Shown here one piece after another: positions 1,106 through 20,858 of a stretch of 64,000 nucleotides of DNA. A model generated the notes under the pieces. The model saw only the letters and a program-made list of their open reading frames with translations. It did no database searches and was not told where the DNA came from. The first letter of the stretch is position 1. Each line of letters starts with the position of its first letter. Origin of the DNA: Propionivibrio dicarboxylicus (lineage in GTDB: Bacteria; Pseudomonadota; Gammaproteobacteria; Burkholderiales; Rhodocyclaceae). The DNA lies in assembly GCF_900099695.1 (NCBI RefSeq), contig NZ_FNCY01000001.1:124001-188000 (forward strand), written 5' to 3'. Made by a program: the position numbers and the translations under genes.

Positions 1106-1151
1106 TATCGTCCGCAATTCAACTTGCTCCTTCCGCAACTCAACTTGCTCC
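1106..1151. repeat. Left transposon end: inverted repeat plus second TnsB-type site
   Basis: The 22-bp terminal repeat (1106-1127) overlaps a 20-bp unit at 1111-1130. A second copy at 1132-1151 in the same orientation differs at one base. Tandem ~20-bp units at an end are the typical layout of TnsB binding sites. The terminal bases are TATCG rather than the usual TGT. Confidence 0.85.
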
Positions 1152-1300
1152 CCTCGGAAAGTATCAATTTTGGCCAGCGAGCCACTTCAACGGTGACGGC
1201 TGGGCCTTAGTATGCCCTGGGGGGCAGCAACGAGTTATAGTCATGCTTTCGATAAAAGGCTGGCCAAATAAGCCATTCCAGCCAACACAACAACGAGAAC

Positions 1301-3139
1301 ATGAATCAACAAGCCCTCTCCTCCTTCATTTGGTCAGTTGCAGACCTACTACGCGGCGATTACAGACAATCCGAATACGGCAAAGTAATCCTCCCATTTA
1401 CAGTTCTGCGCCGCCTGGATTGTGTGCTTGAATCCACCAAAGCGGCCGTGTTGGCCGAATTGAAAGCAAAGACGGCTGCCGGACTTAATCCTGACCCGTT
1501 TCTCCTACGCAAAGCGGGCCAGGGTTTCTACAACACTTCGCCGCTCGACCTCGGCAAACTCTTGGGCGACCAGGACAACATTCGCGAGAACCTCTATGCC
1601 TACATTCAGGGGTTTTCGCCGGCAGCTCTGGACATCTTTGAGCGCTTCGAGTTCTTCACCCAGGTCGAGCGACTGGCCAAAGCCGGGCTGCTCTATCTAG
1701 TCACTGAGAAATTCGCCAATATCGACCTACACCCGGATATCGTCGATAACGCCCAGATGGGCCTGGTGTTCGAGGAGCTAATTCGGAAGTTCGCCGAAAT
1801 CTCGAACGAGACTGCCGGGGAGCACTTTACCCCGCGCGAAGTCATCCGGCTGATGGTGAATCTACTGTTTATTGAGGACGACGATGTTCTGACATCTGGC
1901 AATGCTGTTGTTCGGACCATCTACGACCCAACAGCCGGCACAGGCGGTATGCTTTCCGTGGCCGGTGAATACCTGTTGGAGCTCAATCCATCGGCTCGCC
2001 TAACCATGTTTGGTCAAGAGCTCAACGATGAGTCCTACGCCATCTGCAAGGCTGACATGCTCATCAAGGGCCAGGATGTCGGCAATATCGTGGTCGGCAA
2101 CACCCTTTCCGAAGATGGCCACGGTGGCCGTAAATTCGATTACATGCTCTCCAATCCGCCGTTTGGCGTCGAATGGAAGAAGGTCGAGAAGGAAGTTCGC
2201 AAGGAAGCCGCGGACAAAGGTTTTGACGGCCGTTTCGGCCCCGGGTTGCCCCGGGTCTCCGACGGCTCAATGCTGTTCCTGCTCCACCTCATCAGCAAGA
2301 TGCGTCCGGCTGTCGATGGTGGCAGTCGTATCGGTATCGTTCTCAATGGTTCGCCCCTGTTTACCGGCGGAGCAGGCAGTGGAGAATCTGAAATCCGTCG
2401 CTATGTGCTGGAAAACGACTTGGTCGAGGCCATCATCGGTTTGCCAACCGATATGTTTTACAACACCGGTATTAGCACCTATGTCTGGATTCTCTCCAAC
2501 AAGAAGCCAGGGGTCCGCAAAGGTAAGGTACAGCTCATCGACGCAAGCAGCTTCTGGCAGAAGATGCGCAAAAGTCTCGGCAGCAAGCGAAAAGAGCTGT
2601 CCGACGAACATATCGCCGATATCACACGCCTGTTCGGCGCATTCACCGAAGCCAACCTTGCGACTTTGCTGGATGCCTCTGGCAAGGAAATCAGCCGGGT
2701 GCTCCTGGCTGAGGGGGAAACCCCTCCTCCAGTGCCAGAAGGCTGCCGTATCAAGACAGTTCCGATTTCACGCATCTTCAAGGATGAGGAATTCGGCTAC
2801 ACGACCATCACCGTCGAGCGCCCGCTACGCGATGCTGCCGGCAAAGTCCTGGTTGGCGAGAAGGGAAAACAAAAGGGCAAGCCCCAACCCGATGCCGCTC
2901 TGCGCGACACGGAAAACGTCCCGCTCTTGGACGATATTGACGCTTATTTCAAGCGGGAAGTGTTAGCGCATGCTCCGGATGCCTGGATTGACCAGGAAAA
3001 ATCCAAGGTCGGCTATGAAATCCCGTTCAACCGACATTTCTATGTCTTCGAGCCTCCGCGGAGCCTACATGAGATTGACGAAGAGTTGAAGGCGGTGGCC
3101 ACCAACATCACCAAGATGCTTGAGGGGCTGGCGGAATGA
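1301..3139 (+). CDS. hsdM: Type I restriction-modification methyltransferase HsdM
   Basis: Modification subunit that methylates adenine in the recognition sequence and forms the core of the HsdR2M2S complex. The 612-residue protein has the N-terminal HsdM helical domain (residues 1-150), the S-adenosylmethionine motif [10 protein letters not shown] near residue 209 and the catalytic NPPFG motif near 285, both in the N6-adenine methylase fold. It is the first gene of hsdM-hsdS-hsdR; its TGA overlaps the ATG of hsdS in an ATGA. It is the first cargo gene inside the left transposon end and points inwards. The size is normal for the family, with no sign of damage. Confidence 0.96.
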
Positions 3140-4479
3140 GCTTGCCAAGGTATCAGGGTTACAAGAATAGCGGTATTGCGTGGCTTGGCGATGTCCCATC
3201 TCACTGGGAGGTAATCCGCTACAAAGAACTTTTTGCAGAACGGAATGAGCGCTCGACAGAAGGTGGTGAAACATTGCTATCAGTCTCCGCGTACACGGGG
3301 GTCTCCCCTCGGGCAGATATCATCGACGAAGGGGATTTCTTAAGCCGCGCAGAGTCACTTGAAGGCTATAAGGTTTGCTATCCCAACGACCTAGTGATGA
3401 ACATCATGCTCGCTTGGAATCGTGGGCTTGGATTCTCCGCGTACCATGGGATTGTTAGCCCGGCCTACAGCGTTTTTTCTCTCAAGCGTAAAGATAATCC
3501 TAGGTTTCTTGACTATCTGGTTAGAGAAGATAAGACCACGCTCCAATTCAAGGCATATTCATCAGGGGTGATTGAGTCTAGGTTACGGCTCTATCCCGAA
3601 GTGTTTGGGGCATTGTCTTGTAGTGTACCTCCACCAGAAGAACAAGAAGCCATCGCCACCTTCCTCGACCGAGAAACCGCCAAGATTGACGCCCTGGTTG
3701 CCGAGCAGGAAAAGCTTCTCACGCTCTTAGCAGAAAAGCGCCAAGCCACTATTTCACAAGCTGTGACCAAGGGCCTGAATCCGGATGTGCCGATGAAGGA
3801 TTCGGGGGTAGAGTGGTTGGGAGAAGTACCGGCACATTGGGGGCACAGAAAGAAACTTCTTGATTTGGTGACAAGCCATCGACACTCCTTTGTAAACGGC
3901 CCCTTTGGAAGTGACTTGCTCACATCAGAGCTTGTCTCTGATGGAGTGCCCGTCATCTATATCCGGGATATCAAGCAGAGCGGCTATTGCAGGGTTAGTG
4001 AATGGTGCGTTACCGAAGAAAAGGCCGCACAACTTCAATTCTGCAACGTCCTGCCGGGAGACGTTTTGGTGGCCAAAGTCGGAGACCCACCAGGTTTGGC
4101 CGCTGTTTACCCACAAAATGAGCCAAACGGAATTATTACCCAAGATGTAATTCGTCTTCGGCTTGATATCTGTAAGGCCGATGGCAACTACGTCTGCTGG
4201 TTGCTTAACTCAAAATATGGTCAAACAGCGATTGACCAAATCTCGGTCGAATCGACGAGAACACGAGTGGGACTTGGAGAGTATAAGCAACTCCGGTTTT
4301 TCATCCCCCCGTTGAAAGAGCAGCAGGCGATTTCTATATTTCTTGATAAAGAAATGGGAAGGCTTGATGCACTTACGGTTGAAGCCTTGCGAGCAATTGG
4401 CCTCCTTAAAGAGCGCCGCACCGCCCTAATCTCCGCCGCCGTTACCGGAAAAATCGACGTCCGTCACCTAGCCAATTAA
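3136..4479 (+). CDS. hsdS: Type I restriction-modification specificity subunit HsdS
   Basis: DNA-recognition subunit of the type I complex. The 447 residues hold two target-recognition halves, each opening with a similar block ([16 protein letters not shown] near residue 10 and [16 protein letters not shown] near 220). Each half ends in a conserved helix ([20 protein letters not shown] near 170 and [20 protein letters not shown] near 395) that spaces the two half-sites. It overlaps hsdM by 4 bases and is followed after 11 bases by hsdR. The recognition sequence cannot be read from the protein. HsdS genes vary quickly by recombination; this one looks intact. Confidence 0.95.
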
Positions 4480-4490
4480 GAGAGCGCCAA

Positions 4491-7400
4491 ATGCCAGGCC
4501 TGCACCAAGAACACCACTTCGAATCGGCGATTTGTGAGCATCTTGGTCAGAATGGCTGGCTCTATGAGGAAGCCGATGCCACCCTGTACGACCGGCAAAA
4601 TGCTCTGTTCCTTCCCGACCTGCTAACCTGGGTCGAGGCCACCCAGCCGGATAGCTGGCAACAACTGAGCAAGACACACGGTGCCAGCCTGCCGAAGGTC
4701 CTGGCCGAGCGGGTACGTAAATGCCTTAACGAGCACGGCACGCTGGAAGTGCTGCGCCGCGGTGTCGAGATAGTCGGCCTCAAGAAGCCGCTCGCCATGG
4801 TGCAGTTCAAGCCAGCACTGGGACTAAACGCAACCATCCAGAAAGCCTACGAGGCCAACAGCCTTCGCGTGGTCCGCCAAGTCCATCACTCGTTGAACAA
4901 CACCAAAGAAGCACTGGACCTGGTGCTCTTCGTGAACGGTATCGCCGTGGCTACCGCCGAACTGAAGTCCGACTTCACGCAAAGCGTCGGCGATGCCGTC
5001 GACCAATACCGCTTTGACCGTCATCCGACCCCGAAGGGAGGACTGGTCGAACCGCTGCTGGCCTTCCCCGGCGCAGCCCTCGTCCATTTCGCGGTTAGCC
5101 AAAGCGAAGTCATGATGGCGACGCAATTGGCTGGTCCGGCCACGACTTTTCTGCCGTTCAACCGCGGCAATGAAGGTGGCGCAGGCAACGAACCCAATCC
5201 CTATGGCTACGCCACCGCTTACCTCTGGGAAGACGTCTGGCAGCGCGACAGCTGGCTCGAAATCCTCGGTCGTTACCTCATGGGTAAGCGCAACGACAAG
5301 AAACAACTGACTGGCGTCATCTTCCCGCGCTTCCACCAACTCGACGCCACGCGCAAACTGGTGGCCGACGTTCTAGAAAACGGACCCGGCGAGCGTTACC
5401 TGATTCAGCACTCGGCCGGCTCCGGCAAAACCAACTCGATAGCCTGGACTGCTCACTTCCTGGCCGACTTGCATGATGCTAAGCACCAGAAGCTGTTCGA
5501 CAGTATCCTGGTGGTTTCCGACCGCAATGTGCTTGACGCCCAATTGCAGGAAGCTATCTTTGATTTTCAGCGCACCACCGGCGTGGTTGCCACCATTTCC
5601 GATGACCACGGCAGCAAGAGCGCCCAACTATCCCAGGCACTCAAGGACGGCAAAAAAATCATTGTCTGCACTATCCAGACCTTCCCGTTTGCGCTCGAAG
5701 CCGTCCAGAAGCTCTCGGCCACCGAAGGGAAGCGCTTTGCCGTCATTGCCGACGAAGCCCATAGCTCCCAGACCGGAGAAGCTGCTGCCAAGCTTAAGCA
5801 GGTGCTGTCTGCCGAGGAGCTTGCTGAATTCCAGGATGGCGGCGAAGTTGATACCGAGACCTTGCTGGCTCTCCAGATGTCGGCCAAGGCCAGCCAAGAC
5901 AAAGGCCTGACCTACATCGCCTTCACGGCAACGCCCAAGCAGAAGACGCTTGAGCTGTTCGGCCGCAAAGACGAAGACGGCTTACCTCAAGCCTTCCACG
6001 TCTACTCGATGCGTCAGGCGATTGAAGAAGGCTTCATCCTCGATGTCCTCCAGAACTACACGACCTACAAGCTGGCGTTCAAGCTCGCCAACAATGGCCA
6101 GGAGTACGACGAGAAACAGGTCGAGAAGTCGGAAGCCCTGAAGGGAATCATGCAGTGGGTCCGCCTGCACCCCTACAATATCGCGCAGAAGGTCCAGACG
6201 GTCGTCGAACACTTCCGCGAGAACGTTCAGCCGCTGCTCAACGGTAAGGCCAAGGCCATGGTCGTGGTCAGCAGCCGTAAAGAGGCCGTACGCTGGCAGA
6301 AGGCCATCACGGCCTATATCCAGAAGCATAGTTACAAGCTGGGTGTCCTGGTAGCCTTCTCAGGTGAAATCACCGACTACGATAGCTACCCCGAATCCGT
6401 CTCGGAACACAGCAAACTGCTCAACCCTGAATTGAAAGGGCGAGATATCCGCGATGCCTTTGCCGAACCGGACTATCACCTGCTGCTGGTAGCCAACAAA
6501 TTCCAGACTGGTTTCGACCAACCGCTGCTCTGCGGCATGTATGTCGATAAACGGTTGGCCGGCATCCAAGCGGTACAAACGCTGTCCCGACTGAACCGCG
6601 CTTATCCCGGCAAGGACACCACCTACATCCTCGACTTCGTCAACGAATCCGAGGATGTCCTGGAAGCCTTCAAGACCTATTACGAAACCGCCCAGCTCGA
6701 AGCTACCACCGACCCGAACCTGGTCCTCGACCTTCGCGCAAAATTGGACGCTGCCGGTTACTACGATAATTATGAGGTCGACCGGGTCGCCCAGGTAGAG
6801 ATGGACCCGAAAGGCACACAGGCTCAACTCAATGCCGCCATTGCGCCCGTCGCAGACCGACTGCTCAAACGCTACAAGGCCCTTCGGACAGCCAAAGCCA
6901 CTGCTGACGCCAACAAGGACGAACAAGCTGCCAAGGCAGCCAAGGAGGCGATGGAAGTGCTGGTGCTCTTCAAGAAAGACATGGGCGCCTATAACCGCCT
7001 CTATGCCTTCTTGTCGCAAATATTCGATTACGGCAATACCGACATCGAGAAACGCTTCATCTTCTTCAAGCGTCTGATACCGCTACTGGACTTTGGGCGA
7101 GAGCGGGACACCGTTGACCTATCCAAGGTGGTGTTGACCCACCACACCTTGCGTAACAAGGGACAGCATAGCCTTGACCTTCAGCAGGGCGAATCGAAGA
7201 AGTTGCAACCCATGGCCGAAACTGGCGGCGGCACTCTCCATGACAAGGAAAAGGCCTATCTCGAGGAAATCATCCAGCAGGTGAACGGGCTGTTCGAAGG
7301 CGACCTTTCTGACAACGACCAGCTCGTCTATGTGAATGGTGTCCTAAAAGGGAAGCTCCTGGAGAACGAAACGCTGGTTCAGCAGGCGGCCAACAACACC

Positions 7401-7604
7401 AAGGAGCAGTTTGCCAACTCTCCAGACCTGTCACAAGCGCTTCTCAACGCCATTATGGATGCGCTGGGTGCGCATACAACGATGAGCACCCAGGCTCTGG
7501 GCTCGGAGAAGATTCGCGAGGGATTGAAAGATACTCTGTTGGGGCCGGCGCAGTTGTATGAGGAGCTTCGAGCTAAGGCTTGGCCGTCAGCCACAGTTGC
7601 TTAA
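4491..7604 (+). CDS. hsdR: Type I restriction endonuclease subunit HsdR
   Basis: Motor and nuclease subunit that translocates and cuts unmodified DNA. The 1037-residue protein carries an N-terminal PD-(D/E)xK nuclease (DLVLFVNGIAVATAELKSDF, near residue 144), then a superfamily 2 helicase with Walker A SAGSGKT near 308, DEAH near 422 and TATP near 481, the later helicase motifs (ANKFQTGFDQPLL, QTLSRLNR), and a helical C-terminal region. It is the last gene of the hsd operon. Length and motifs are complete, so the R-M system is probably functional. Confidence 0.95.
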   Translation: MPGLHQEHHFESAICEHLGQNGWLYEEADATLYDRQNALFLPDLLTWVEATQPDSWQQLSKTHGASLPKVLAERVRKCLNEHGTLEVLRRGVEIVGLKKPLAMVQFKPALGLNATIQKAYEANSLRVVRQVHHSLNNTKEALDLVLFVNGIAVATAELKSDFTQSVGDAVDQYRFDRHPTPKGGLVEPLLAFPGAALVHFAVSQSEVMMATQLAGPATTFLPFNRGNEGGAGNEPNPYGYATAYLWEDVWQRDSWLEILGRYLMGKRNDKKQLTGVIFPRFHQLDATRKLVADVLENGPGERYLIQHSAGSGKTNSIAWTAHFLADLHDAKHQKLFDSILVVSDRNVLDAQLQEAIFDFQRTTGVVATISDDHGSKSAQLSQALKDGKKIIVCTIQTFPFALEAVQKLSATEGKRFAVIADEAHSSQTGEAAAKLKQVLSAEELAEFQDGGEVDTETLLALQMSAKASQDKGLTYIAFTATPKQKTLELFGRKDEDGLPQAFHVYSMRQAIEEGFILDVLQNYTTYKLAFKLANNGQEYDEKQVEKSEALKGIMQWVRLHPYNIAQKVQTVVEHFRENVQPLLNGKAKAMVVVSSRKEAVRWQKAITAYIQKHSYKLGVLVAFSGEITDYDSYPESVSEHSKLLNPELKGRDIRDAFAEPDYHLLLVANKFQTGFDQPLLCGMYVDKRLAGIQAVQTLSRLNRAYPGKDTTYILDFVNESEDVLEAFKTYYETAQLEATTDPNLVLDLRAKLDAAGYYDNYEVDRVAQVEMDPKGTQAQLNAAIAPVADRLLKRYKALRTAKATADANKDEQAAKAAKEAMEVLVLFKKDMGAYNRLYAFLSQIFDYGNTDIEKRFIFFKRLIPLLDFGRERDTVDLSKVVLTHHTLRNKGQHSLDLQQGESKKLQPMAETGGGTLHDKEKAYLEEIIQQVNGLFEGDLSDNDQLVYVNGVLKGKLLENETLVQQAANNTKEQFANSPDLSQALLNAIMDALGAHTTMSTQALGSEKIREGLKDTLLGPAQLYEELRAKAWPSATVA

Positions 7605-7883: not shown

Positions 7884-9482
7884 ATGCTAGGTTCAGTAAT
7901 CGTCTCGTCACCACCCATGCATCCCGTCGGATTGACCGATGAGGAGCTGGCTCGTCTGCTTCAAGGGCTTTTAGCCGCTGGGAAAGAATCTCTGCTGGTA
8001 GTCAATCGATTCACCTGCAGTGTGTTTTCGAAGGAAGCCTCGACCAATGTGTGGGACTTTGAGGGTATCGGTGACCTTGGTGGAGACTCCTTGAGCGCCA
8101 TGTCTTCGTACTTCAGGCGCCGTGTCCTTAAATGGGCTGAAACCACCGCAACTAACCCAAGGGATGCCAACCTATCAGCCTTGAGGGTCACTGCAGCAAC
8201 CAAGAAAGTGGTTCAGTCTTGGCAGGCTGCAGTGCTCGGGGCCACTACCTCCAAGGGGCGCACAGGTGAGGTAAGTTCAAAAACAGCTCAAAAGGTGTTC
8301 ATGGCATCGGCGTGGCGCTGTCAATTTGATGGGTGCGGCGAAGACCTTTCATCTCATTTTGCGACAGATGGGCACGCGAACTACAGCTATCTCGCCCACA
8401 TCGTTGCCTCGTCGGCAGATGGCCCTCGCGGGGATGCGGTCCAGTCTCCACTGCTAGCCGACGACGCTGAGAACATCATGTTGCTTTGCGACAAGTGCCA
8501 TCGGCTTATCGACCGAGTAGCTCCGGCCATTTATACAACGGAAAAGCTTCGAGCCATGCGTGCCCGAAACGTTGCCGATATAAAGCGCCTTCTTGCTGGT
8601 CTCCAGTACCCACCGGCTGAGCCAATCATGCTAATCGGCAACGTCACGGGGCAGCCTCATCACTACTCGAAGCGGAACGTCGAAGACGCCATGCTTAATG
8701 TCGGGCTAAGACCTAGTAGAGATGAGCCGGAGTATTTCTGTTTCAATAGCTACATCTTGCACAACCCGCATTCGGCGGCATACTGGGGCAGTCTCTTCGA
8801 GTCGCTTTCCACCGACATCCCTCGCATGAAAGCCCTCTTGAACGGCTCGGCGCGAGGTCATGCGCGACCTCACCTTGCTGTCTTCCCGATACATAGCACC
8901 TCAGTTTTGATACTGGGCGGTCGGCTCATTGGTGACACGGCCGGAGTTTCAGTCTTTCAATTCCACCGAGACAAGGTGGCGGGCAACCAAGGTGGGCAGT
9001 GGGCATGGCCGTCGGATGCTACCGAGCCACGCCCCGAAAAGTATCGACTGGAGGTTCTCAAGGACCACCAGAGTGAGACCGAGGCTTGCCTATTGGTGTC
9101 ACTGACGTTCGACATTGCTCAAGATAGACTGACTGCTGAATGCTACGAAAACGGTGTGCTGAAGTTGCCAACTCTTAAGCTCACCGCTAACCGATTTAGC
9201 TCTGATGTCATCGGACATCCCAAGGACTTGGAACTCTTTGGCACCAAGCTGGATGAAGCCATCCGTACACTTCAGGATAGATGGAAGGTTCGGCGCATTC
9301 ATCTCTTCGTAGGTGCGCCGGCTTCTGCCTGCTTCCGTGTAGGGCAAAAAATTCAAGCACGCAATCAAGCCATATATGTCTGCTACGAGACCGACCGGGG
9401 CTCCGGAAGCCCGTTTAAGCAAACCATAGAAATTTCATCAACCTTGGTCTCCGGCCCTGGCGGTGAGCAGGTAGCGCTCTAA
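7884..9482 (+). CDS. cap5: CBASS effector: HNH endonuclease fused to SAVED domain (Cap5-like)
   Basis: Probable killer protein of the CBASS operon: the SAVED domain senses a cyclic oligonucleotide made by the adjacent CD-NTase, and the HNH domain then degrades DNA. HNH residues are H172, N197 and H206, with a likely zinc site at C146, C151, C202 and C205. The C-terminal half is SAVED-like, including the block HLFVGAPASACFRVGQKIQ near residue 475. At 532 residues it is clearly longer than ordinary Cap5 proteins (roughly 370-400), because about 130 residues of unrecognised sequence precede the HNH domain. The chosen ATG has AGGA 8 bases upstream; a later ATG at 7917 is possible. Confidence 0.88.
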   Translation: MLGSVIVSSPPMHPVGLTDEELARLLQGLLAAGKESLLVVNRFTCSVFSKEASTNVWDFEGIGDLGGDSLSAMSSYFRRRVLKWAETTATNPRDANLSALRVTAATKKVVQSWQAAVLGATTSKGRTGEVSSKTAQKVFMASAWRCQFDGCGEDLSSHFATDGHANYSYLAHIVASSADGPRGDAVQSPLLADDAENIMLLCDKCHRLIDRVAPAIYTTEKLRAMRARNVADIKRLLAGLQYPPAEPIMLIGNVTGQPHHYSKRNVEDAMLNVGLRPSRDEPEYFCFNSYILHNPHSAAYWGSLFESLSTDIPRMKALLNGSARGHARPHLAVFPIHSTSVLILGGRLIGDTAGVSVFQFHRDKVAGNQGGQWAWPSDATEPRPEKYRLEVLKDHQSETEACLLVSLTFDIAQDRLTAECYENGVLKLPTLKLTANRFSSDVIGHPKDLELFGTKLDEAIRTLQDRWKVRRIHLFVGAPASACFRVGQKIQARNQAIYVCYETDRGSGSPFKQTIEISSTLVSGPGGEQVAL

Positions 9483-12464: not shown

Positions 12465-12942
12465 CCAGAGCCTTCGCTTCCGCTTGCCTGGCGCTGCGTG
12501 GAGCCTTGAGATACCCTCGGATAGCTTGTCTGTGCTCAAGAAGCATGCACAATGTGGTTGGATGAAACGAGAGGTCGTTGGCCAACTTTACGCTCTCGAC
12601 CTCACGAAAGAGGTTGTCGTAGTCGATATGGTCACGAAACTCCCAGCACAATGGTCTGCGTTCGCTGGCGTTGGTTTCGACCTTCGAGACGCGGAAGCCG
12701 AACGAGAGCGACTTTTTGAACAAGGGCTTCACTGTCTTGGGTTTTGGCATACGCATCCGGAACCAATACCGTACCCGTCGGGAACGGACCTCCAGATGGC
12801 TGCTGACCATGCTAACGCATCAAAGAGCCTGTTTACTGGGCTCCTTTTTTTGATTGTGGGGAAAGCTCCGTTCCCACAGGGGCTTGGTGTTTGGCTTCAC
12901 GACGGCCATCAGGCATTGCGAGCTGCACCAGAGGAGCTGTGA
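12457..12942 (+). CDS. cap3: CBASS Cap3: JAB/JAMM deconjugating metalloprotease
   Basis: Isopeptidase-like zinc protease that reverses Cap2 conjugation. The 161-residue protein has the full JAMM signature: E39, then H98-x-H100 and D111 (FWHTHP...PSGTD), the H-x-H-x10-D spacing of the family. It overlaps the end of cap2, so the two are translationally coupled, and it closes the CBASS operon. Nothing in the sequence looks broken. Confidence 0.92.
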   Translation: MADQSLRFRLPGAAWSLEIPSDSLSVLKKHAQCGWMKREVVGQLYALDLTKEVVVVDMVTKLPAQWSAFAGVGFDLRDAEAERERLFEQGLHCLGFWHTHPEPIPYPSGTDLQMAADHANASKSLFTGLLFLIVGKAPFPQGLGVWLHDGHQALRAAPEEL

Positions 12943-13121: not shown

Positions 13122-13556
13122 CTAGGAACGCAGGTGCTTGGCAATCAACTCTGCCGGGTCTAGCGTTTCGCTGGCGTTCGCATCGGCCGTGCTCAGGTAG
13201 GCTCGAAGAAACTCGAACATGGCATAACGGGCCTCCGCCCCTAATCTACCGTCGGGTTGCCCCTGCGCATATTTTTCGACCAATTCGAAAACACGCTTCT
13301 CCAGACTGCGCTGTTCCTCCGCTGCAGGTGGGCTTTTGCGCCCAAACAGGACGTAGTTGAGGTCTATGCCGCTGTTTCCTATTGCCGACAAGAATCTGAC
13401 GGTAGGTGACCGTGATTCGCTTTCGTATTGGCCTTGAGCCAGTCGCTGAACCCCGGCAGCTTCCGCGAACTGTGCTTGGGTAAAGCCTAAGCGCTCGCGC
13501 TCTTCCCTGAGTCGTCGTCCAAAGCCAGCCGGAATAATGGTCATTTGTGCACTCAT
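13122..13556 (-). CDS. XRE-family helix-turn-helix repressor
   Basis: A 144-residue DNA-binding protein with an N-terminal XRE helix-turn-helix (residues about 11-65: FGRRLREERERLGFTQAQFAEAAG) and a helical C-terminal half that probably dimerises. It stands opposite the CBASS operon and divergent from the gp16-like gene. The 113 bases between them hold two inverted repeats that make good operator candidates. It may repress itself, the neighbour, CBASS or transposition; the sequence does not say which. No peptidase domain is seen. Confidence 0.82.
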   Translation of the reverse strand: MSAQMTIIPAGFGRRLREERERLGFTQAQFAEAAGVQRLAQGQYESESRSPTVRFLSAIGNSGIDLNYVLFGRKSPPAAEEQRSLEKRVFELVEKYAQGQPDGRLGAEARYAMFEFLRAYLSTADANASETLDPAELIAKHLRS

Positions 13557-13565
13557 GTAGAAATT

Positions 13566-13614: not shown

Positions 13615-13687
13615 TTGAATTTATTTAGGCGCAAAAATCACGATAATAGCATGCAAAATATAACACTAAATGCGCAAAGTGCCAACT

Positions 13688-13918
13688 ATGTTCGAAAGTA
13701 CCAAACGTGTTCGTGTGATTTTTGAAGAGGCCGGAATACCGGTTTCTTCATGGGCTCGAGCCAACGGCTTTTCGACCGGGCTTGTCTATCAAGTTCTGGA
13801 GGGGAAGCGGAAGTGCCTGCGTGGGCAGAGCCATCAGATAGCTGTGGCGCTGGGTTTAAAAACGGGGCTAGCGAGTTCCTTGGAGCAGTTGAACGAGCGG
13901 TTGCACCGGGAAGAGTAA
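13688..13918 (+). CDS. Small DNA-binding protein, BcepMu gp16-like
   Basis: A 76-residue protein if it starts at the second ATG (13688); an upstream ATG at 13670 would add six residues. It resembles the BcepMu gp16 family found in Mu-like phages and transposons, with an unusual helix-turn-helix pattern (WARANGFSTGLVYQVLEGKRKCLRG followed by IAVALGLK). Such proteins are thought to be transcriptional regulators of the mobile element. It is divergent from the XRE gene and precedes the tns operon. Family recognition is from memory of the motif, without a search. Confidence 0.7.
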   Translation: MFESTKRVRVIFEEAGIPVSSWARANGFSTGLVYQVLEGKRKCLRGQSHQIAVALGLKTGLASSLEQLNERLHREE

Positions 13919-13997: not shown

Positions 13998-14157
13998 CGC
14001 CCTGCCCAGGCAGGAGGTGATTCTTGGTTGGCGCTAAGAGTATCTCCAAGCCAGGCGGCGAAGTCAAGAGATTTGTTGTCTTTTGAAACCGTGCTTTGCG
14101 TAAGTGCATGCATATGCATGTCCTGCTGCTGCGCTAAGGCTCAGCTTGGAGAGTTCC

Positions 14158-15120
14158 ATGGCGACGAAGAAAAGGAAGTTCAGAAAATCCCCGAAGCCTC
14201 TCGTGGAGGTGCCCGGCGCACCTATTCGTCACCTTGCCGAATGCAGCCCTCATCGAACCACCGGGGGGCGATTTGTGGAAGGTATAACTCAGTTCGATGC
14301 CGAGTACGAATCCCACATTGAGAGCGGCGTGCTTAACCACCTGCTCCTCTGCCATGATGTTCGTGCCATCACCTCACAGGCCAGTGAAGAGCCCTATTCG
14401 CTGGAAGGCAAGATTCGCCACCATATCCCTGATTTCACCGTTGATGCGTTTGTTGATGGTCTTCGGCTCGAAGTCAAATCATTGACTTTCCTGGTTCGAG
14501 AAGATTCCCTGGACAAATACGTCGCGATAGCTCGGGCGTACCGGGAGAGACAGATACCCTTTGCTTTCTTGGTGGACGCTCAACTGGCAGAAGAGCCACG
14601 AAGCTCTTCCGTGAAGCTGTTGTCGCGGTACGTTACCTCACGAGTTCCGGCAAATAATGTCGCTCGAATCACTGAAACTTTGACGGCGGGTCCTCTCTCG
14701 ATTCTCGATTTGATGACGCGCGCCTCCGTTGAACTAGTCGATGTGTGGTCGATGATAGCGACCCGAAAAATCTGCTTTGACTGGAGCATACCTCTTCACC
14801 CTCGCACGACAGTCGTCAGCCTGCCCGCGCAACCTTTTGGAGGATTAGCCCTTGAGTCGATTATTGGTTCGGGCAGGTACAGTGGTCTTCTGGCAGAAAT
14901 GGCTATGGGTCGTCGACCGGCAAATAAACCACTCCTGGCGGATGCGGCGACTTGGCGACGGAGTCGTCAGCCTGTTAGCCCACGGGGATTTTTTGGTGGC
15001 GCTGTCCTTGGGGCGCCTCTACGTAGTCTCACCGAGGAGGAGCGCCTATTTCGAAACGCTTACCACCGAGGAGGTTTCTCGCTTGGTCAGGTCGCTGGTT
15101 CAATCGACGCCGGCAAGTGA
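14158..15120 (+). CDS. tnsA: TnsA-like transposon endonuclease
   Basis: Cuts the 5' ends of the element so that, with TnsB, it leaves by cut-and-paste. The restriction-fold active site is visible: E52 or E55, D92 in HHIPDF, then E105 and K107 in LEVKS. The start chosen (MATKKRKFRK) has GGAGAG 7 bases upstream; an in-frame ATG at 14104 lacks one. The protein would be 320 residues, somewhat longer than Tn7 TnsA (273). A second frame from a TTG at 14852 with a good GGAGGA site overlaps the last 90 codons, so the true C-terminus deserves checking. It is first in tnsA-tnsB-tnsC-tniQ1-tniQ2, 12 bases before tnsB. Confidence 0.88.
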   Translation: MATKKRKFRKSPKPLVEVPGAPIRHLAECSPHRTTGGRFVEGITQFDAEYESHIESGVLNHLLLCHDVRAITSQASEEPYSLEGKIRHHIPDFTVDAFVDGLRLEVKSLTFLVREDSLDKYVAIARAYRERQIPFAFLVDAQLAEEPRSSSVKLLSRYVTSRVPANNVARITETLTAGPLSILDLMTRASVELVDVWSMIATRKICFDWSIPLHPRTTVVSLPAQPFGGLALESIIGSGRYSGLLAEMAMGRRPANKPLLADAATWRRSRQPVSPRGFFGGAVLGAPLRSLTEEERLFRNAYHRGGFSLGQVAGSIDAGK

Positions 15121-15132
15121 GCGGGACGAAAA

Positions 15133-17121
15133 ATGGGCCACTTTTACTTCGAGAAGGGATTGGTTGTAAAACGACTCGGTCAATTCCTTGAGTATTCGTC
15201 TCGTTGTGGAGATGAACTGTATTTCGAGAATCCGGAGACTGGTAAGCGGGAGACGATAGAGGAGTCTTCATTCTGGGAAGAGCAACAAACCGGGCGCCTC
15301 GCCGTCTTGACTGCGTTTTCCTCGCCAAAGGCGTTGCTATTACCAGAGGAGCCGGAGCCAACAATCGATGTAACTTTGGCCGATATCCCCGAAAAGCATC
15401 AAGATGAAGTGATAAGGCGGCACGACTACATCAGCCGCTTGAAGGCAGCAGGAATCACCAAAGGTCAGAAGCAGCTTATTCGAGAAGAAGCTGAAAAGAT
15501 AGCCAAGGAAATTGATGACCCACGCGGGGTGCCGAGTGAATCCACTTTGCGCCGCTGGTGGCGGCTATTTGAGAAAAACAGTTACAACGTCTTTGCGCTG
15601 GTGAATAAGAACGCCAGGAAAAGCCCGGCCAAACGGCTGGATGGTGAAAGCGAGAAATATCTTCAAGACAATATTGAGGAGGTCTATTTACAGCCAACTC
15701 GGCCCGGGGGCGCTTCGGCCTATCGTCAGTACAAAGATACCCTGGAGCGGGAAAACTCGCTACGGCAACTGAACGGAGAGCAATTGCTCACCTTGGTGTC
15801 AGAGCGCACCTACCTGAACCGCATCAAGCTGCTGCCTAAAGAAGAGGTGTTGGTGGCGCGGTTAGGACGGGAAGCCGCCAGGCACACGCTCAAAATGATT
15901 AAGGGCCATCTACCGGCGGACTTCCCGCTGGACTGCGCGGAGCTTGACCATACGCCGATGAACCTCTATGTCATTGATGACCGCGCGTTGCTTCCCCTTG
16001 GGAGGCCCTGGCTAACAGCCATCAAAGACCGTCGGACCGGCATGTTACTTGGCTTCTTTATCTCGTTTCACCAAACCGGACTGCGTTCGATTTTTGGGGC
16101 CATTAAGCACTCTTTGCTTTCGCATAATCGCGCTTACGAGATTTGGCCTGAGCTCGAAAACCCTTGGCCGGCACATGGCTGTGCCGTGAAATATGTTTCG
16201 GACCGTGGAGCGGATTTCTTAAGCAAGCGATGCAAGGCAGCGATTCTTTCGTTGGGGAGCGGATACGAGCATTGCGAGCGTCGTACCCCCTGGTTGAAAG
16301 CCTCCATCGAGAGATTCTTCCTGACACTGGAACAGACTTTTTTTGAGATGCTTCCCGGAAGAACTTTTTCCTGCCTTAAGGAGCGTGGCGATTATGACCC
16401 CGCAAAGGATGCGGTAATCAGAGTCTCAACCCTCGCCTTCTTGTTGCACAAATGGGCGGTTGACCATCACAACGTCTTTCCGAACAAAAGAACGCAGGAA
16501 ATACCGCTACTGGTATGGAAGGAATTGGTAGGCGTGGCTCCGCCGCCATATCCGGCCAGCATTGACGCACTGGATATTATCCTGGGCGAGCGACATACGG
16601 GGTGCCTATCACACGAAGGAATACGGTTTCAATGGCTCAACTATGCCGACGACACATTGGCTGAAATGATGAAGCAGCTTGGTAGAGATACAAGGGTCGA
16701 CTATGTCGTGTCATCGGAAAATTTGGGGCAAATTCATGTGCAGAACCCACGGACAAAAGAGTACATCCTGGTGCCATGTACTCGCCCTGACTATGCGCAA
16801 GGACTTAGCCTACACCAGCACAAATGCTTGCGAAAAGAAGCTGGCGTTAGGCTGAAGGCAGTGACTGCTGTCGATACCCTGAGAGAAACCCGGCTAATGA
16901 TTAATGACCGAATCCGTGAGGAAATCGCCAACAAAGAGAACATTCCCAAGGCGCGCCTAGCAAAACTTGCCGAGATTAACTCCAACGCCATTCTGAATGG
17001 CGAATCGAGAACTATCCTGACCCCATTCGCCGGCCAGCAGCTTTCCAGGCAAACCCCGTTAGAAATTAAACAGGCCACCGCCCCCATCACCGACATACCG
17101 ATTTTTGCCTGGGGCATCTGA
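15133..17121 (+). CDS. tnsB: TnsB/TniA-like DDE transposase
   Basis: Catalytic transposase that binds the end repeats, cuts the 3' ends and joins them to target DNA. The 662-residue protein has an N-terminal DNA-binding part (residues 1-260) and an rve-type core with D272 (ELDHTP), D357 (VSDRGADF) and E393 (KASIERFF); the 35 residues between the last two are typical of DDE integrases. A C-terminal domain follows and ends in a tail that probably contacts TnsC. The start lies 12 bases after tnsA. The next gene begins at once after its TGA, so translation is coupled. Confidence 0.95.
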   Translation: MGHFYFEKGLVVKRLGQFLEYSSRCGDELYFENPETGKRETIEESSFWEEQQTGRLAVLTAFSSPKALLLPEEPEPTIDVTLADIPEKHQDEVIRRHDYISRLKAAGITKGQKQLIREEAEKIAKEIDDPRGVPSESTLRRWWRLFEKNSYNVFALVNKNARKSPAKRLDGESEKYLQDNIEEVYLQPTRPGGASAYRQYKDTLERENSLRQLNGEQLLTLVSERTYLNRIKLLPKEEVLVARLGREAARHTLKMIKGHLPADFPLDCAELDHTPMNLYVIDDRALLPLGRPWLTAIKDRRTGMLLGFFISFHQTGLRSIFGAIKHSLLSHNRAYEIWPELENPWPAHGCAVKYVSDRGADFLSKRCKAAILSLGSGYEHCERRTPWLKASIERFFLTLEQTFFEMLPGRTFSCLKERGDYDPAKDAVIRVSTLAFLLHKWAVDHHNVFPNKRTQEIPLLVWKELVGVAPPPYPASIDALDIILGERHTGCLSHEGIRFQWLNYADDTLAEMMKQLGRDTRVDYVVSSENLGQIHVQNPRTKEYILVPCTRPDYAQGLSLHQHKCLRKEAGVRLKAVTAVDTLRETRLMINDRIREEIANKENIPKARLAKLAEINSNAILNGESRTILTPFAGQQLSRQTPLEIKQATAPITDIPIFAWGI

Positions 17122-17122
17122 C

Positions 17123-18097
17123 ATGGGCGCAGCAGTTTTCCAAACGAAGTCCATTTTCCAGGGCTTGGAGAAGGCACAACCTAAAGACTTGGCGCCAGAC
17201 GATAGAAGACTCCTGGCTTTGCGTGGAACCGAAGTGGAACGCGCGGAATTTACACGCGTGGTCTCAATTGCGGTGCCCTCTTACCGGCGCAGTATGAAAT
17301 TTATGGAAACTCTTCTGGAAAAATCGGACAAATTCAAAAGCCCTGGTGGGTTGTGGATATTCGGTGGCGGAGGAGAGGGGAAGTCGTTTATTTTGCAGGC
17401 CTTCCTGTGTAAGCACCTGCCTGTCGAAACGACGGAAAGATATGTGTGCCCTGTTTTGTATCTTCGATTTGACGGTAGGCCGGCTGAATCGGAGATTTAT
17501 CTATCAATTCTCCTGAAACTTGGCCAGAACCCGGAGTCAGTCAGATTCGATAGCAACAGCAAACTTCGCCAACTTGCGAGTAATGCGCTAAAGCAGTGCA
17601 ACGTCAAAATCATTTTGTTTGACGAAGCACAACATCTATTTCTGTCCGTATCGGGAAATCGAACCAGAGACCGATTTGGTGGGGTTTTAGGCGACTCGCT
17701 CAAGACACTTTATGACCAACTTGAGTCGGTTGCTTTCGTATTTGCCGGGACTCCGGGTTTGGAGGCCATCTTGGCGGATACTCAAATTTCGACGCGCTGG
17801 CCTGGAACGCTGAAGCTTGAATCCTTCAAATATGATGAGATTTTTATTGGCCTCCTGGGGGCGCTTGATAGCGCGCTACCGATGGAGGAATTATCCGGAT
17901 TAGCCGACGAGGAATTGAGCAAGAAAATCTATGAAACGTGCGGCGGCAACTTTCGTCGCTTGAAAAACTTCCTTGCAGATGCAGTAGCCATCGCAGCTTC
18001 AGCAGGTGCCAAATCAATATCAATGGTGCATTTTGCCAAGGCCCATTTCCAGATTTTCTGTGTCGAACAAACCCCATTTGGGCTCGTCGACATATGA
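17123..18097 (+). CDS. tnsC: TnsC/TniB-like AAA+ ATPase, transposition regulator
   Basis: ATP-dependent adaptor that forms filaments on DNA and links the TniQ target selectors to the TnsAB transposase. The 324-residue protein has Walker A (GGGGEGKS, residues 81-88) and Walker B (IILFDEAQ, D167 E168). The ATG at 17123 follows the tnsB stop directly; a TTG at 17105 is the alternative. Its own stop overlaps the next ATG (ATGA), showing tight coupling with tniQ1. Confidence 0.94.
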   Translation: MGAAVFQTKSIFQGLEKAQPKDLAPDDRRLLALRGTEVERAEFTRVVSIAVPSYRRSMKFMETLLEKSDKFKSPGGLWIFGGGGEGKSFILQAFLCKHLPVETTERYVCPVLYLRFDGRPAESEIYLSILLKLGQNPESVRFDSNSKLRQLASNALKQCNVKIILFDEAQHLFLSVSGNRTRDRFGGVLGDSLKTLYDQLESVAFVFAGTPGLEAILADTQISTRWPGTLKLESFKYDEIFIGLLGALDSALPMEELSGLADEELSKKIYETCGGNFRRLKNFLADAVAIAASAGAKSISMVHFAKAHFQIFCVEQTPFGLVDI

Positions 18098-19116
18098 GCG
18101 AATTTCGAGTAATCCACCGAGTGACGCCATTTCCCGAAGAGTACGTGCTCGGGTACCTCCACCGTGTGGCAGAAAAGAACGGCATCAAAGGCATTCAGAG
18201 TCTGTTGTCCGATGCATTGGGAACGCCACGGCATTCGGTATCTTTAACGGTGGTGACAAAGCTCGCGACTTACTGTCGCTTGTATCCGGAAGAGGTGGAG
18301 CAACTGTCCGGGATTGAGAGACGCAACCACGATGGAGTGCGGTCATGGCAAGTGTGCGGCGAATGGGTTACCAAAGCAGCGTTCATCGCCCCGAATCATC
18401 GCAAGTTTTGTCCCTGCTGCTTACGCGAAGCACCTTTTGTCAGAGGGTGTTGGCAACTGGTTTTCTACAATGCTTGCGCTCGCCATCGAACGCGCCTGCT
18501 GGATTGTTGCCCGAAGTGTCGAAAGCGGCTGAACTGGACAGCACATCGCCTTGAGTATTGCGCCTGTGGTTACAAACTCGCAGATGCCGAGGCACTTCAC
18601 GCATCGAACGACGCGTTAACCATGTCGTTCCTAATCGAGCTACGTGGCGGCGCTCGAGTACCTCCGGGAGAGTCCTTGGGGGTCGGTCACAGAGAGTTTG
18701 ACCTCCTGGCCGGCTTGAGTTTGGATGGCCTGCATAAAACGATATGGTTTCTCGGACATTGCCTCAAAGACTTGGGACGTTATGGGACGGGGCACGGGAG
18801 GCTAAAGCGCGGTCAAACCGAGGTGGATTTGATGATAAGGCACACTTTTGAGTTGCTAAAGGATTGGCCAAAGGGATTCGGCGACTTACTGGCCGAATAC
18901 GCGCGGCGCCCACCGGCAGATTACCAGGGGCCCCTCGAAGGAAGGCTGCTTGGTCCAGTACAGCGGTATTTGCGACAGGAACTGGATGGCGAGGAAATGG
19001 CGTTTATTCGATTGACATATGAGCAGCATCTGCGAACCATTTGGCAGGAGTTCGGACATAAGCATCGACTTCGGCGTGTCCGGCAACTTGAATTCGATTT
19101 CGAAAAACAGGAGTAA
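18094..19116 (+). CDS. tniQ1: TniQ/TnsD-family target selector (first copy)
   Basis: DNA-binding target selector of the TniQ family, 340 residues. The N-terminal TniQ domain (residues 1-150) is followed by clustered cysteines typical of the family's zinc fingers: FCPCCLREAP, CARH, CCPKCRKRL and CACG between about residues 106 and 167. It starts within the tnsC stop codon (ATGA). The element encodes a second, different TniQ next door, so it probably has two targeting routes. Which one recognises the chromosomal site near rpoH cannot be told from the sequence. Confidence 0.9.
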   Translation: MSEFRVIHRVTPFPEEYVLGYLHRVAEKNGIKGIQSLLSDALGTPRHSVSLTVVTKLATYCRLYPEEVEQLSGIERRNHDGVRSWQVCGEWVTKAAFIAPNHRKFCPCCLREAPFVRGCWQLVFYNACARHRTRLLDCCPKCRKRLNWTAHRLEYCACGYKLADAEALHASNDALTMSFLIELRGGARVPPGESLGVGHREFDLLAGLSLDGLHKTIWFLGHCLKDLGRYGTGHGRLKRGQTEVDLMIRHTFELLKDWPKGFGDLLAEYARRPPADYQGPLEGRLLGPVQRYLRQELDGEEMAFIRLTYEQHLRTIWQEFGHKHRLRRVRQLEFDFEKQE

Positions 19117-19118
19117 CG

Positions 19119-20222
19119 GTGGCTGACCGAAAGGAATTAATCTCCAAAGTCCTGTCCGATATCCAAGCCAACAATCACCTCGCTGCTAGCTGCCCGACGC
19201 GCCAGCGAATATTCGGGACCCCTGCTCCGATAGACGGTGAGGCATTTAGCTCCTGGCTTTGGCGCACAACAAGTGGGGTTGGCATTTCAACGAGGGCATT
19301 CCGTAAGATTCTCGGATTGGAGGTACCCCCTGGTTGGGTTGACGCCGGCTGGTATCAGCCAGACTGGAGCCGGTTCGCCGAGGTCTTCGCGCTACCGGTC
19401 GAGGATTTTCGGAGGCTTGAGCCTCCGGTGGACAGTCCGTTCCGGCGTGCCGATTTCGCTTGCGTTACAACCAGCATATTTCACAAACTTCCCGTCTATC
19501 GATTCTGCGAGAGCTGTATGCGGAACGACAAAACACCGCACATCCGGTGGCTGTGGCGATTGAAATGCGCCTTTGTGTGTCCAACTCACGACAGCGTGCT
19601 ACGAGACCGGTGCCCGCACTGCGGACATTTGTTTCAACTACCAATTCAGGATTGGGTACGTGGGAAGGTTAACCTGCTTCTTTGCGGCCTGTGCGGTGAA
19701 AGCCTGGTCGACTGTCAGCCAGTAACGCTGCCGCACGAACTTCACTATTACGTGCTCGGGAGGCAGACGGAGTTGCTTTGCCTTATGTCTGAAAAGAAAA
19801 AACCTCCTTGTGCCTCCGGGCTGCCCACCCCTGTTGAGCCACCCCTGTTGCGTGTTAGCCCTAGCGGTTACATCGACGTCGACCGCGACGATAACGCAAC
19901 GAAGCTTTTTCGGTATCTGCTTTCTAGCCTGGCTAACAAAGGTCAACTGTGCTCAGCCGATAACGTGCGTCAATTTCGCAGCTATTTGTTGGAAGTTCCT
20001 GTCCCGCAGGAATCTGGAGACCCCAAATCGCTGGCGTTGGGATTTGCCGGATACAAATTGTTTGGATACGAAAGTATTTACATTCAGGAGCATCTAACCA
20101 AATGCCAGAGTGGGACGTACTGGTATCCACCGAGTGATGAAATGCTCACATCAAGAGCAAATCAGGGAATGTGCCAGGCAGCGCGGGAATGGATAGACCT
20201 TCTCGATACGTTGCCGTCGTAG
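19119..20222 (+). CDS. tniQ2: TniQ/TnsD-family target selector (second copy)
   Basis: A second TniQ-family protein, 367 residues, starting at GTG only 3 bases after tniQ1 with AGGAG just upstream. It has an N-terminal TniQ-like region (FSSWLWRTT, residues 44-52) and zinc-binding clusters: CESCMRND, CPTHDSVL, CPHCGHLF and CGLCGESL (about residues 128-206). The two TniQ proteins align only in these general features, so they are not a recent duplication. Pairs of TniQ proteins in Tn7-like elements usually serve a fixed chromosomal site and a mobile target respectively; that division is inferred here. Confidence 0.88.
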   Translation: MADRKELISKVLSDIQANNHLAASCPTRQRIFGTPAPIDGEAFSSWLWRTTSGVGISTRAFRKILGLEVPPGWVDAGWYQPDWSRFAEVFALPVEDFRRLEPPVDSPFRRADFACVTTSIFHKLPVYRFCESCMRNDKTPHIRWLWRLKCAFVCPTHDSVLRDRCPHCGHLFQLPIQDWVRGKVNLLLCGLCGESLVDCQPVTLPHELHYYVLGRQTELLCLMSEKKKPPCASGLPTPVEPPLLRVSPSGYIDVDRDDNATKLFRYLLSSLANKGQLCSADNVRQFRSYLLEVPVPQESGDPKSLALGFAGYKLFGYESIYIQEHLTKCQSGTYWYPPSDEMLTSRANQGMCQAAREWIDLLDTLPS

Positions 20223-20343
20223 GACGACTACGTTTCCATACCGGGTGTATCTAGTCCTAATCGACAAGATAAGCCTTCCGCCATGCAGCCTAATAATAGA
20301 CTGCTATATTGTATTGACGTCGATAAAAGTCTAATATTGGGCT

Positions 20344-20688
20344 ATGGACCTGTATCAACTAACGAATGATGAAGTGGCGCAACGCATAGCTGCCTCGCTA
20401 CGAGCTTGGCGGGTAGCGCGTGGGGGTGCAGCGACAACCCAGGAGGTCCTGGCTAAGCGGGCTGGAATCGGCTTGACGCCTCTCAAGAGATTCGAAAAAA
20501 CGGGCGCCATTACTCTGCGCAATCTAATCGCAATTTTGCGCGCTATGGAGTTGCTGGAGAATTTTGACGGCGTATTTCCCGACCCGGATTCCCCCAGCCC
20601 GCTCGATATTTTGGCGGCTGAACAGAAAAAGGCCAAGAGGGCGCGAAAACGCGCGCCCCGGTCGTCGGTCGCAGTGTCAAAGAAATGA
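20344..20688 (+). CDS. XRE-family regulator, HipB-like
   Basis: A 114-residue protein with an XRE helix-turn-helix (residues about 8-75) and a basic C-terminal tail (KKAKRARKRAPR). The segment FPDPDSPSPLDIL resembles regulators that usually precede HipA-type kinases, but no hipA follows: the transposon end is reached within 36 bases. It may control the tns genes. TAGACT (20297-20302) and AGTCTA (20328-20333) upstream form a spaced inverted repeat that could be its operator. Confidence 0.75.
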   Translation: MDLYQLTNDEVAQRIAASLRAWRVARGGAATTQEVLAKRAGIGLTPLKRFEKTGAITLRNLIAILRAMELLENFDGVFPDPDSPSPLDILAAEQKKAKRARKRAPRSSVAVSKK

Positions 20689-20723
20689 TGCGGCCAGTTC
20701 GCTTGGTTGCTCAAGACAGACGA

Positions 20724-20858
20724 GGGGCAAGTTGAATTGCGGAGAGTCCGAAAAGGAGCAACTTCAGTTGCCGAATCTCCGGGGGTCATGTTGCGAAAAT
20801 ATTGGTAATGTACTGATTTATAAGGCGCGCATGGGGGCAAGTTGAATTGCGGACGATA
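20724..20858. repeat. Right transposon end: inverted repeat plus internal TnsB-type sites
   Basis: Three copies of the ~20-bp end motif, inverted relative to the left end: 20724-20743, a weaker copy at 20755-20774 (16 of 20 bases) and the terminal copy at 20834-20853, inside the 22-bp repeat 20837-20858. The different number and spacing from the left end (two tandem copies) gives the asymmetry usual in Tn7-like elements. Confidence 0.85.

What the first reader, a model, noticed from the sequence alone, without database searches (positions are those of the whole stretch)
1106..20858. Complete Tn7-like element loaded with two anti-phage systems
Perfect 22-bp inverted ends, a 5-bp duplication (GCAAC) on both sides, a full tnsABC-tniQ-tniQ operon, and cargo made wholly of defence (type I R-M plus type II CBASS). 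It is an intact, precisely bounded mobile defence island next to a nitrogen fixation region. Tn7-like elements are known to carry defence genes, but this combination in this lineage may be undescribed.
Basis: partly seen in the sequence, partly recalled or inferred. Interest (0 to 1): 0.75.

Follow-up and report, generated by a model that had tools for sequence, protein, structure and literature searches.

The report
Defence transposon homing to heat-shock switch
A complete Tn7-like jumping element carrying two anti-phage systems sits next to CIRCE, the operator of bacterial heat-shock genes, and several distant relatives in other bacteria sit at the same switch, which points to a new landing site for this transposon family.

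Summary
Confirmed: 1106-20858 is an intact Tn7-like element (22/22-bp ends, GCAAC on both sides, end arrays, tnsABC plus two tniQ) carrying type I R-M and type II CBASS. Such cargo is already known. The new part lies 46 bp outside the left end: a perfect CIRCE (1033-1059, HrcA operator) before rpoH. Among eight related elements with enough flank (window included; TnsB at least 37% identical), six have the tnsA-side end beside a CIRCE before groES or rpoH: five at 36-66 bp, one at 193 bp; two sit at an ArsR-type palindrome instead. Of 39 more distant Tn7-like loci one has a CIRCE, again 65 bp from a TSD-verified end. A Polynucleobacter sibling shows the empty site in 27 of the 29 best-matching relatives; in the window's own genus none was found. 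The genome has only two CIRCE sites. These elements encode two short TniQs and no long TnsD. Best reading: a Tn7-like lineage that homes upstream of CIRCE. Which TniQ reads it, and whether HrcA is needed, is open. My literature searches found no description of this site.

The parts
136..987 (-). rpoH (sigma-32), host gene next to the insertion
   Evidence: TIGR02392 E 7.5e-123
1033..1059 (.). CIRCE, TTAGCACTC-N9-GAGTGCTAA, between rpoH and the element; proposed attachment signal
   Evidence: 0 mismatches; one of only two sites (up to 2 mismatches) in the genome; present before rpoH in 10 of 10 genus relatives scanned, one with 1 mismatch
1101..1105 (.). target duplication GCAAC, left copy
1106..1127 (+). 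left (CIRCE-proximal) terminal inverted repeat
   Evidence: 22/22 with right end
1111..1151 (+). two left-end repeats, 21 bp apart (presumed TnsB sites)
   Evidence: similar 21-bp layout in the left ends of 6 of 7 relatives, by eye (Silvimonas unclear)
1301..3139 (+). hsdM, type I methyltransferase
   Evidence: PADLOC MTase_I E 2.6e-271
3136..4479 (+). hsdS, specificity subunit
   Evidence: E 1.7e-121
4491..7604 (+). hsdR, type I restriction subunit
   Evidence: E 4.5e-35
7884..9482 (+). CBASS effector, HNH-SAVED (Cap5-like)
   Evidence: PADLOC Effector/Endonuclease E 3.8e-225; SAVED E 1.5e-39; solved SAVED protein 7rwk E 6.1e-25
9508..10725 (+). CBASS CD-NTase, CdnG-like
   Evidence: PADLOC Cyclase E 1.3e-93; CdnG 8hsb E 9.6e-37
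10737..12464 (+). CBASS Cap2 (E1-E2)
   Evidence: E 7.1e-223
12457..12942 (+). CBASS Cap3 (JAB)
   Evidence: E 3.7e-64
13122..13556 (-). XRE/HTH regulator, divergent from the tns operon
   Evidence: HTH_31 E 3.8e-7; homologue beside tnsA in 7 of 9 relatives
13670..13918 (+). small Cro-like DNA-binding protein (inferred)
   Evidence: no Pfam hit; homologue in 4 of 9 relatives
14104..15120 (+). tnsA (true start may lie further inside)
   Evidence: NF033179 E 1.8e-4, below cut-off; homologue found in each relative aligned
15133..17121 (+). tnsB, DDE transposase
17105..18097 (+). tnsC (TniB ATPase)
   Evidence: PF05621 E 1.2e-19
18094..19116 (+). tniQ1, 340 aa, candidate target selector
   Evidence: PF06527; profile closest to I-F CAST TniQ
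19119..20222 (+). tniQ2, 367 aa, second short TniQ
   Evidence: PF06527
20344..20688 (+). HTH (HipB-like by eye) orphan gene
   Evidence: no Pfam or PADLOC hit
20724..20853 (-). three right-end repeats (presumed TnsB sites)
20837..20858 (-). right terminal inverted repeat
20859..20863 (.). target duplication GCAAC, right copy

Best explanation
1106-20858 is an intact cut-and-paste Tn7-like transposon. TnsA+TnsB would excise it at the two end arrays, and TnsC plus the two short TniQ proteins would direct it, in one orientation, to a site about 35-66 bp upstream of a CIRCE (HrcA operator) in front of a heat-shock gene, leaving operator and promoter in place. In the window it used the CIRCE of rpoH; in relatives that of groES. 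The cargo (type I R-M, type II CBASS) would protect the host, and a divergent HTH pair probably represses the tns operon. Shown: gene content, ends, TSD, empty site in a sibling, recurrent CIRCE adjacency, orientation. Inferred: that CIRCE (as DNA, or HrcA bound to it) is what is recognised, that TniQ1 and/or TniQ2 recognise it, and that any of the genes are active.
For: Ends, TSD, arrays. Gap from CIRCE to element: G127 36, window 46, Methylobacillus 49, Silvimonas 58, Methylophilus sp. 14 66, Polynucleobacter 193, i.e. 6 of the 8 elements (window included) with TnsB at least 37% identical and enough flank. Both ends with a 5/5 TSD and an inverted repeat clearly above the chance pairs: window GCAAC (22/22), Polynucleobacter GAAAT (19/22), Methylophilus CGTGT (19/22). 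More distant element G224 (TnsB 29%): TSD CTAAT, 15 identical terminal bases, gap 65. G1080, another Polynucleobacter: left-end-like array 60 bp after CIRCE and a tnsABC-tniQ-tniQ operon on the contig that bears the other flank. Controls: 1 of 39 other Tn7-like loci (728 kb) has a CIRCE, and it is G224. Only 2 CIRCE sites in the 4.53-Mb genome: a chance place within 70 bp on one side is about 3e-5. The tnsA-side end faces CIRCE in all seven cases where tns genes and CIRCE are on one contig. The window's element is at rpoH and the others at groES, so CIRCE is the shared feature; the window genome's own groES CIRCE has no element beside it in the 3-kb locus read. HrcA is present in all eight hosts with a CIRCE-adjacent element (among the 10 of 12 genomes with a match). 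Empty site in 27 of the 29 best-matching Polynucleobacter loci.
Against: The gap varies (36-66), whereas a directly bound site usually gives a fixed distance (recalled), and Polynucleobacter lies at 193. Two of the 8 (Azonexus, MAG84) are not at CIRCE but about 28-30 bp (counted by eye) from a palindrome before an ArsR-family gene, although MAG84's contig holds a CIRCE before groES 20.9 kb from its end. TniQ1 does not group by target with support. The end pairs of G127 and Silvimonas (each 15/22 with a 5/5 TSD) are no better than chance pairs in the same search (others reached 16/22), so those two rest on their left ends; Methylobacillus and G1080 have one end placed. Control stretches reach only about 17 kb beyond tnsA, or less, so elements with more cargo there could hide a CIRCE. 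Short TniQ pairs also occur in elements not at CIRCE. The region before rpoH carries other, non-Tn7 sequence in genus relatives, so it may be a tolerated spot. The same contigs suggested and tested the idea; only G224 and G1080 were found afterwards.
Confidence: 0.8

Rival explanations
1. The element is an ordinary Tn7-like transposon whose TniQ recognises some other feature shared by these promoters (for example a sigma-32-type promoter or AT-rich upstream DNA); CIRCE is a bystander.
For: CIRCE lies within or beside the promoter in these genes, and CTTGAAA-like letters appear beyond CIRCE in several groES flanks (read by eye). Gaps measured from that motif also vary.
Against: The rpoH and groES upstream regions share little besides CIRCE (by eye); no such clear motif is seen in the window's flank.
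Confidence: 0.12
2. Safe-harbour bias: insertions upstream of rpoH/groES survive because they do no harm, with no specific recognition.
For: Genus relatives have differing, non-Tn7 sequence beyond the rpoH CIRCE.
Against: A 36-66 bp gap in 7 of 8 CIRCE cases and one orientation in the seven that can be read; 38 of 39 other Tn7-like loci lack a CIRCE and the one that has it is again at its end.
Confidence: 0.06
3. A form of the best explanation in which the selector does not read DNA itself: a short TniQ docks on host repressor HrcA bound at CIRCE (in relatives, on ArsR- or GntR-type repressors).
For: Both TniQs are short (336-343 and 288-375 aa) and TniQ1 is closest to the adaptor TniQ of I-F CASTs; Faure et al. 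2023 (PMC10293859, sections 10 and 11 read) take a short TniQ as a sign of a further selector; relatives lie near palindromes before repressor genes; HrcA is present in all eight hosts with CIRCE-adjacent elements.
Against: No direct evidence; CIRCE implies HrcA anyway; palindromes before regulator genes are common.
Confidence: 0.25

Closest known systems
Tn7 and Tn7-like transposons with defence cargo (Benler et al. 2021, PMC8649781)
   Same: tnsABC, TniQ/TnsD, 5-bp duplication, TnsB-site arrays, R-M and CBASS cargo
   Different: insertion next to CIRCE before rpoH/groES; two short TniQs; ends begin TATCG in the window (TCTCG, TGTCG, TATSG in relatives, TGCGG in G224) rather than always TGT (recalled as usual); tns operon reads outward, with tniQ2 next to the distal end and cargo between the CIRCE-side end and tnsA
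Type I-F3 CAST elements (Tn6677, PseCAST)
   Same: closest solved TnsB and TniQ; Xre-type regulator genes are reported in I-F3 elements (PMC11406308, passages seen); insertion tens of bp from the recognised target (50-60 bp in CASTs, PMC8649781 section 6)
   Different: no CRISPR-like repeat array inside the element and no cas family among the hits of the ten cargo and HTH proteins scanned
Tn6022 with TniQ+TnsF (Faure et al. 2023, PMC10293859)
   Same: short TniQ working in a Tn7-like element
   Different: no third selector gene recognised in the tns operon; target is not comM
Type II CBASS with HNH-SAVED effector and CdnG-like cyclase
   Same: all four genes present
   Different: nothing notable

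Membership tests
Tn7-like transposon | TnsB DDE transposase | tested here: met
Tn7-like transposon | TnsC/TniB ATPase | tested here: met
Tn7-like transposon | TniQ/TnsD target selector | tested here: met
   two TniQ
Tn7-like transposon | TnsA endonuclease (cut-and-paste branch) | tested here: inconclusive
   weak NCBIfam hit below cut-off; position and homologues fit
Tn7-like transposon | 5-bp target duplication and end arrays | tested here: met
Tn7-like transposon | recurrent attachment site, one orientation | tested here: met
Tn7-like transposon | transposition activity | not testable with these tools
   no experiment
CRISPR-associated transposon | cas genes / CRISPR array | tested here: not met
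   no CRISPR-like repeat family in 1000-20960; no cas family among the hits of ten proteins scanned
Type II CBASS | CD-NTase, effector, Cap2, Cap3 | tested here: met
Type I R-M | HsdM, HsdS, HsdR | tested here: met

The most novel reading that the evidence does not exclude
A branch of Tn7-like transposons with paired short TniQs uses host repressor-operator complexes as landing pads: HrcA on CIRCE (window and seven others), an ArsR-type operator (Azonexus, MAG84) and a GntR/YtrA-type operator (Roseateles, Rubrivivax). TniQ docks on the bound repressor or on the palindrome, so target choice changes by adapting to another transcription factor: transposition guided by transcription factors rather than by RNA or a dedicated long TnsD.
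Probability: 0.2. Interest if true: 0.9.

Novelty: new variant of a known kind. Interest (0 to 1): 0.63.

Why it matters
Attachment sites of Tn7-like elements named in the papers I read are conserved genes or tRNA genes (glmS, comM, parE, tRNA). A lineage that homes to a widely conserved regulatory operator would add a new class of safe site, help explain how such defence islands spread between distant Proteobacteria, and offer a small protein-only system for insertion upstream of a promoter. It also makes a concrete question testable: does a TniQ read DNA itself or ride on a host transcription factor?

Tried and rejected
An empty site in the element's own genus: rpoH was found in 14 of 18 genus relatives; the moaD-AOR side matched over its length in G380 (no rpoH hit there) and from AOR on in G373, where rpoH lies on another contig. 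So the joined site could not be tested there. Exact-match search for the end motif in viral contigs gave two single matches, read as chance. Direct use of the window's end motif on relatives failed at first; the TSD-plus-inverted-repeat search worked. An apparent G680 end was a chance repeat in a coding gene. TniQ1 as the selector because it tracks the target: identities hint at it (window TniQ1 closest to Polynucleobacter 39.7%, TnsB closest to MAG84 55%), but the trees give no support. The HTH pair as selector: rejected, since it was not found in Silvimonas (at CIRCE) while hth1 is present in Azonexus and MAG84 (not at CIRCE). The TniQ2 model was too poor to use (mean pLDDT 53.6). A 10.5-bp helical phase of the gaps: remainders scatter, not claimed. 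Rfam: no match in 1-24000. Rows dropped: L086 and L089 (TnsB 49%, 46%) were not scored because their contigs end before the tnsA-side end; a partial second TnsB in G680 and one in G1065 were not followed. The class-wide TniQ1 search (9 of 369 genomes) gave no further close family member beyond G127. The AOR query in my flank set for searches was out of frame and says nothing; one search used an in-frame one.
Full report
The element runs from 1106 to 20858 with 22/22-bp inverted ends and the 5-bp duplication GCAAC; 60 shuffles of the first 40 kb gave at most 18 of 22 under the same search. Both ends carry arrays of the terminal motif. Between them lie type I R-M (1301-7604), a four-gene type II CBASS (7884-12942; HNH-SAVED effector, CdnG-like cyclase, Cap2, Cap3), a divergent HTH pair, tnsA-tnsB-tnsC-tniQ1-tniQ2 and an orphan HTH gene. 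GC is lower in the element than in most of the window beyond it. One TnsB match was found in the whole genome. The first nif gene among ten proteins scanned lies about 19 kb to the right.

Between rpoH and the element lies a perfect CIRCE, the operator of the HrcA heat-shock repressor (name and function recalled), at 1033-1059; 46 bases separate it from the element's first base. The genome holds only two CIRCE sites at up to two mismatches: this one and one in front of groES, with no element beside it in the 3-kb locus read.

Relatives. Ten elements, the window's included, have TnsB at least 37% identical to it; two lie on contigs too short to score. Of the other eight, six have the tnsA-side end beside CIRCE: G127 36 bp, window 46, Methylobacillus glycogenes 49, Silvimonas amylolytica 58, Methylophilus sp. 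14 66, Polynucleobacter parvulilacunae 193. The gene behind CIRCE is rpoH in the window and groES in the others; in Methylobacillus the groES frame is interrupted and groEL follows. End pairs well above chance with a 5/5 duplication: window, Polynucleobacter (19/22) and Methylophilus (19/22, a 48.4-kb element). The pairs proposed for G127 and Silvimonas reach 15/22, which other pairs in the same search also reach, so their right ends are unsure; for Methylobacillus only the left end is placed. By eye the left ends of 6 of 7 relatives share the window's layout, an 8-base tip beginning T(A/C/G)T and repeats 21 bp apart; Silvimonas is unclear.

Controls. I scanned 39 further Tn7-like loci (TnsB 24-32% identical; all other full rows): 33 fetched for about 17 kb on the tnsA side, four of them cut short by small contigs, and six held with 10 kb or less there. 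In the CIRCE cases of the family CIRCE lies within 14 kb of tnsA, so the range is comparable, but longer cargo would be missed. One of 39 (728 kb) contains a CIRCE. That one, G224, is an element whose left end, with TSD CTAAT and 15 identical terminal bases at both ends, lies 65 bp from the CIRCE of groES. It too has two short TniQs (open frames of 358 and 341 aa), matching the TniQ2 and TniQ1 profiles in swapped order. In the order-wide TniQ1 search, of the 26 other matches at E 1e-20 or better (family members and G224 left out) 21 lie in open frames of 593-811 aa and 5 in shorter ones; the CIRCE elements have 336-343 and 288-375 aa. Short TniQ pairs are not confined to CIRCE elements (L092, L093).

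Empty site. In Polynucleobacter the 600-bp joined flanks of the sibling element run through the junction in 27 of 29 loci. These 29 are the best-matching of 56 other genomes with a match; several of the 27 not compared match only up to about 33 bp beyond CIRCE. The two exceptions also break between CIRCE and the junction. One of them, G1080, has a left-end-like array 60 bp after CIRCE and, on the contig that carries the other flank, its own tnsABC-tniQ-tniQ operon; its two ends could not be paired. A further species, G1086, has by eye a right end of the Polynucleobacter type before the native right flank near the same spot. So this groES site seems to have been hit more than once in one genus.

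Exceptions. Azonexus fungiphilus and a MAG (TnsB 55% to the window, 85% to each other) sit about 28-30 bp from a palindrome in front of an ArsR-family gene followed by an acyltransferase gene (names by eye). The Azonexus right end abuts a second copy of a left end, so its duplication is not independent evidence. Two more distant elements with paired short TniQs, in Roseateles and Rubrivivax, have left arrays 85-102 bp from a GGTGTG...CACACC palindrome in front of a GntR-like gene (name by eye); their right ends were not found. These four give the bolder idea of operator homing, but each pair is one lineage, and palindromes before regulator genes are common.

Mechanism. The common factor of the eight CIRCE cases is CIRCE itself, one orientation in the seven that can be read, and, in seven, a gap of 36-66 bp, similar to the 50-60 bp between CAST targets and insertion (PMC8649781, section 6 read). 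The selector is most likely TniQ1, TniQ2 or both: no other gene is constant in the operon, and the HTH pair was not found in Silvimonas. TniQ1 resembles the adaptor TniQ of I-F CASTs (AlphaFold model of mean pLDDT 70), and Faure et al. 2023 (PMC10293859, sections 10 and 11 read) note that a small TniQ without a large C-terminal extension goes with additional selectors. HrcA, which all eight hosts with CIRCE-adjacent elements encode, is the obvious candidate, but direct DNA reading by a TniQ pair is equally open. Trees neither support nor reject TniQ1 as the determinant.

Literature. Defence cargo in Tn7-like elements is established (PMC8649781, sections 6, 7 and 10 read). Seven searches, of which I saw listings and starts of abstracts only, found no report of this site: Tn7-like+groES (5 papers), transposon/CIRCE element/insertion site/groESL (12 with at least three terms), TnsD+groEL+attachment site (1, E. 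coli attTn7), Tn7+CIRCE+HrcA (0), genomic island/TniQ/groES (207 with at least two terms, 15 listed), Tn7-like/transposon/rpoH/upstream of rpoH (7 with at least three terms, 6 listed), Tn7-like+target site+repressor+operator+TniQ (2). Term counts for groES or groE and for heat shock are zero in the main texts of PMC10293859, PMC8649781 and PMC11406308. The library lacks most subscription journals, so this is not proof of novelty.

Noticed in passing
window 13122-13918: Divergent HTH pair before tnsA, hth1 found beside tnsA in 7 of 9 relatives and hth2 in 4 of 9; looks like a CI/Cro-type switch on the tns operon, comparable in role to the Xre regulators reported for I-F3 CASTs.
   Followed up: partly
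window 1106-1110 and 20854-20858: Element tips read TATCG, not TGT; relatives have TCTCG, TGTCG or TATSG, so the terminal TG/CA usual in this superfamily (recalled) is not always kept.
   Followed up: partly
window 20344-20688: Orphan HTH gene (HipB-like by eye) between tniQ2 and the right end; no toxin partner recognised beside it.
   Followed up: no
window 7654-7780: Short direct repeats around CCGCCAAA in the gap between hsdR and the CBASS effector gene.
   Followed up: no
L015-L028, L116-L125 (upstream of rpoH in genus relatives): CIRCE before rpoH is conserved in the genus, and the DNA beyond it differs between species; L017 and L020 show AATTAAAGTCGAAAAC-type repeats. No tns homologue was found in L116-L125.
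   Followed up: partly
L085 / L101-L104 (Azonexus fungiphilus): Left and right ends of two copies abut (59904 and 59907 in the joined stretch), with a further right-end motif at 60411 and a second hth1-hth2-tnsA fragment: tandem or nested elements.
   Followed up: no
L079-L081 (G680), about 27 kb from its tnsB: A second, partial TnsB (49% identical locally) with a stop inside.
   Followed up: no
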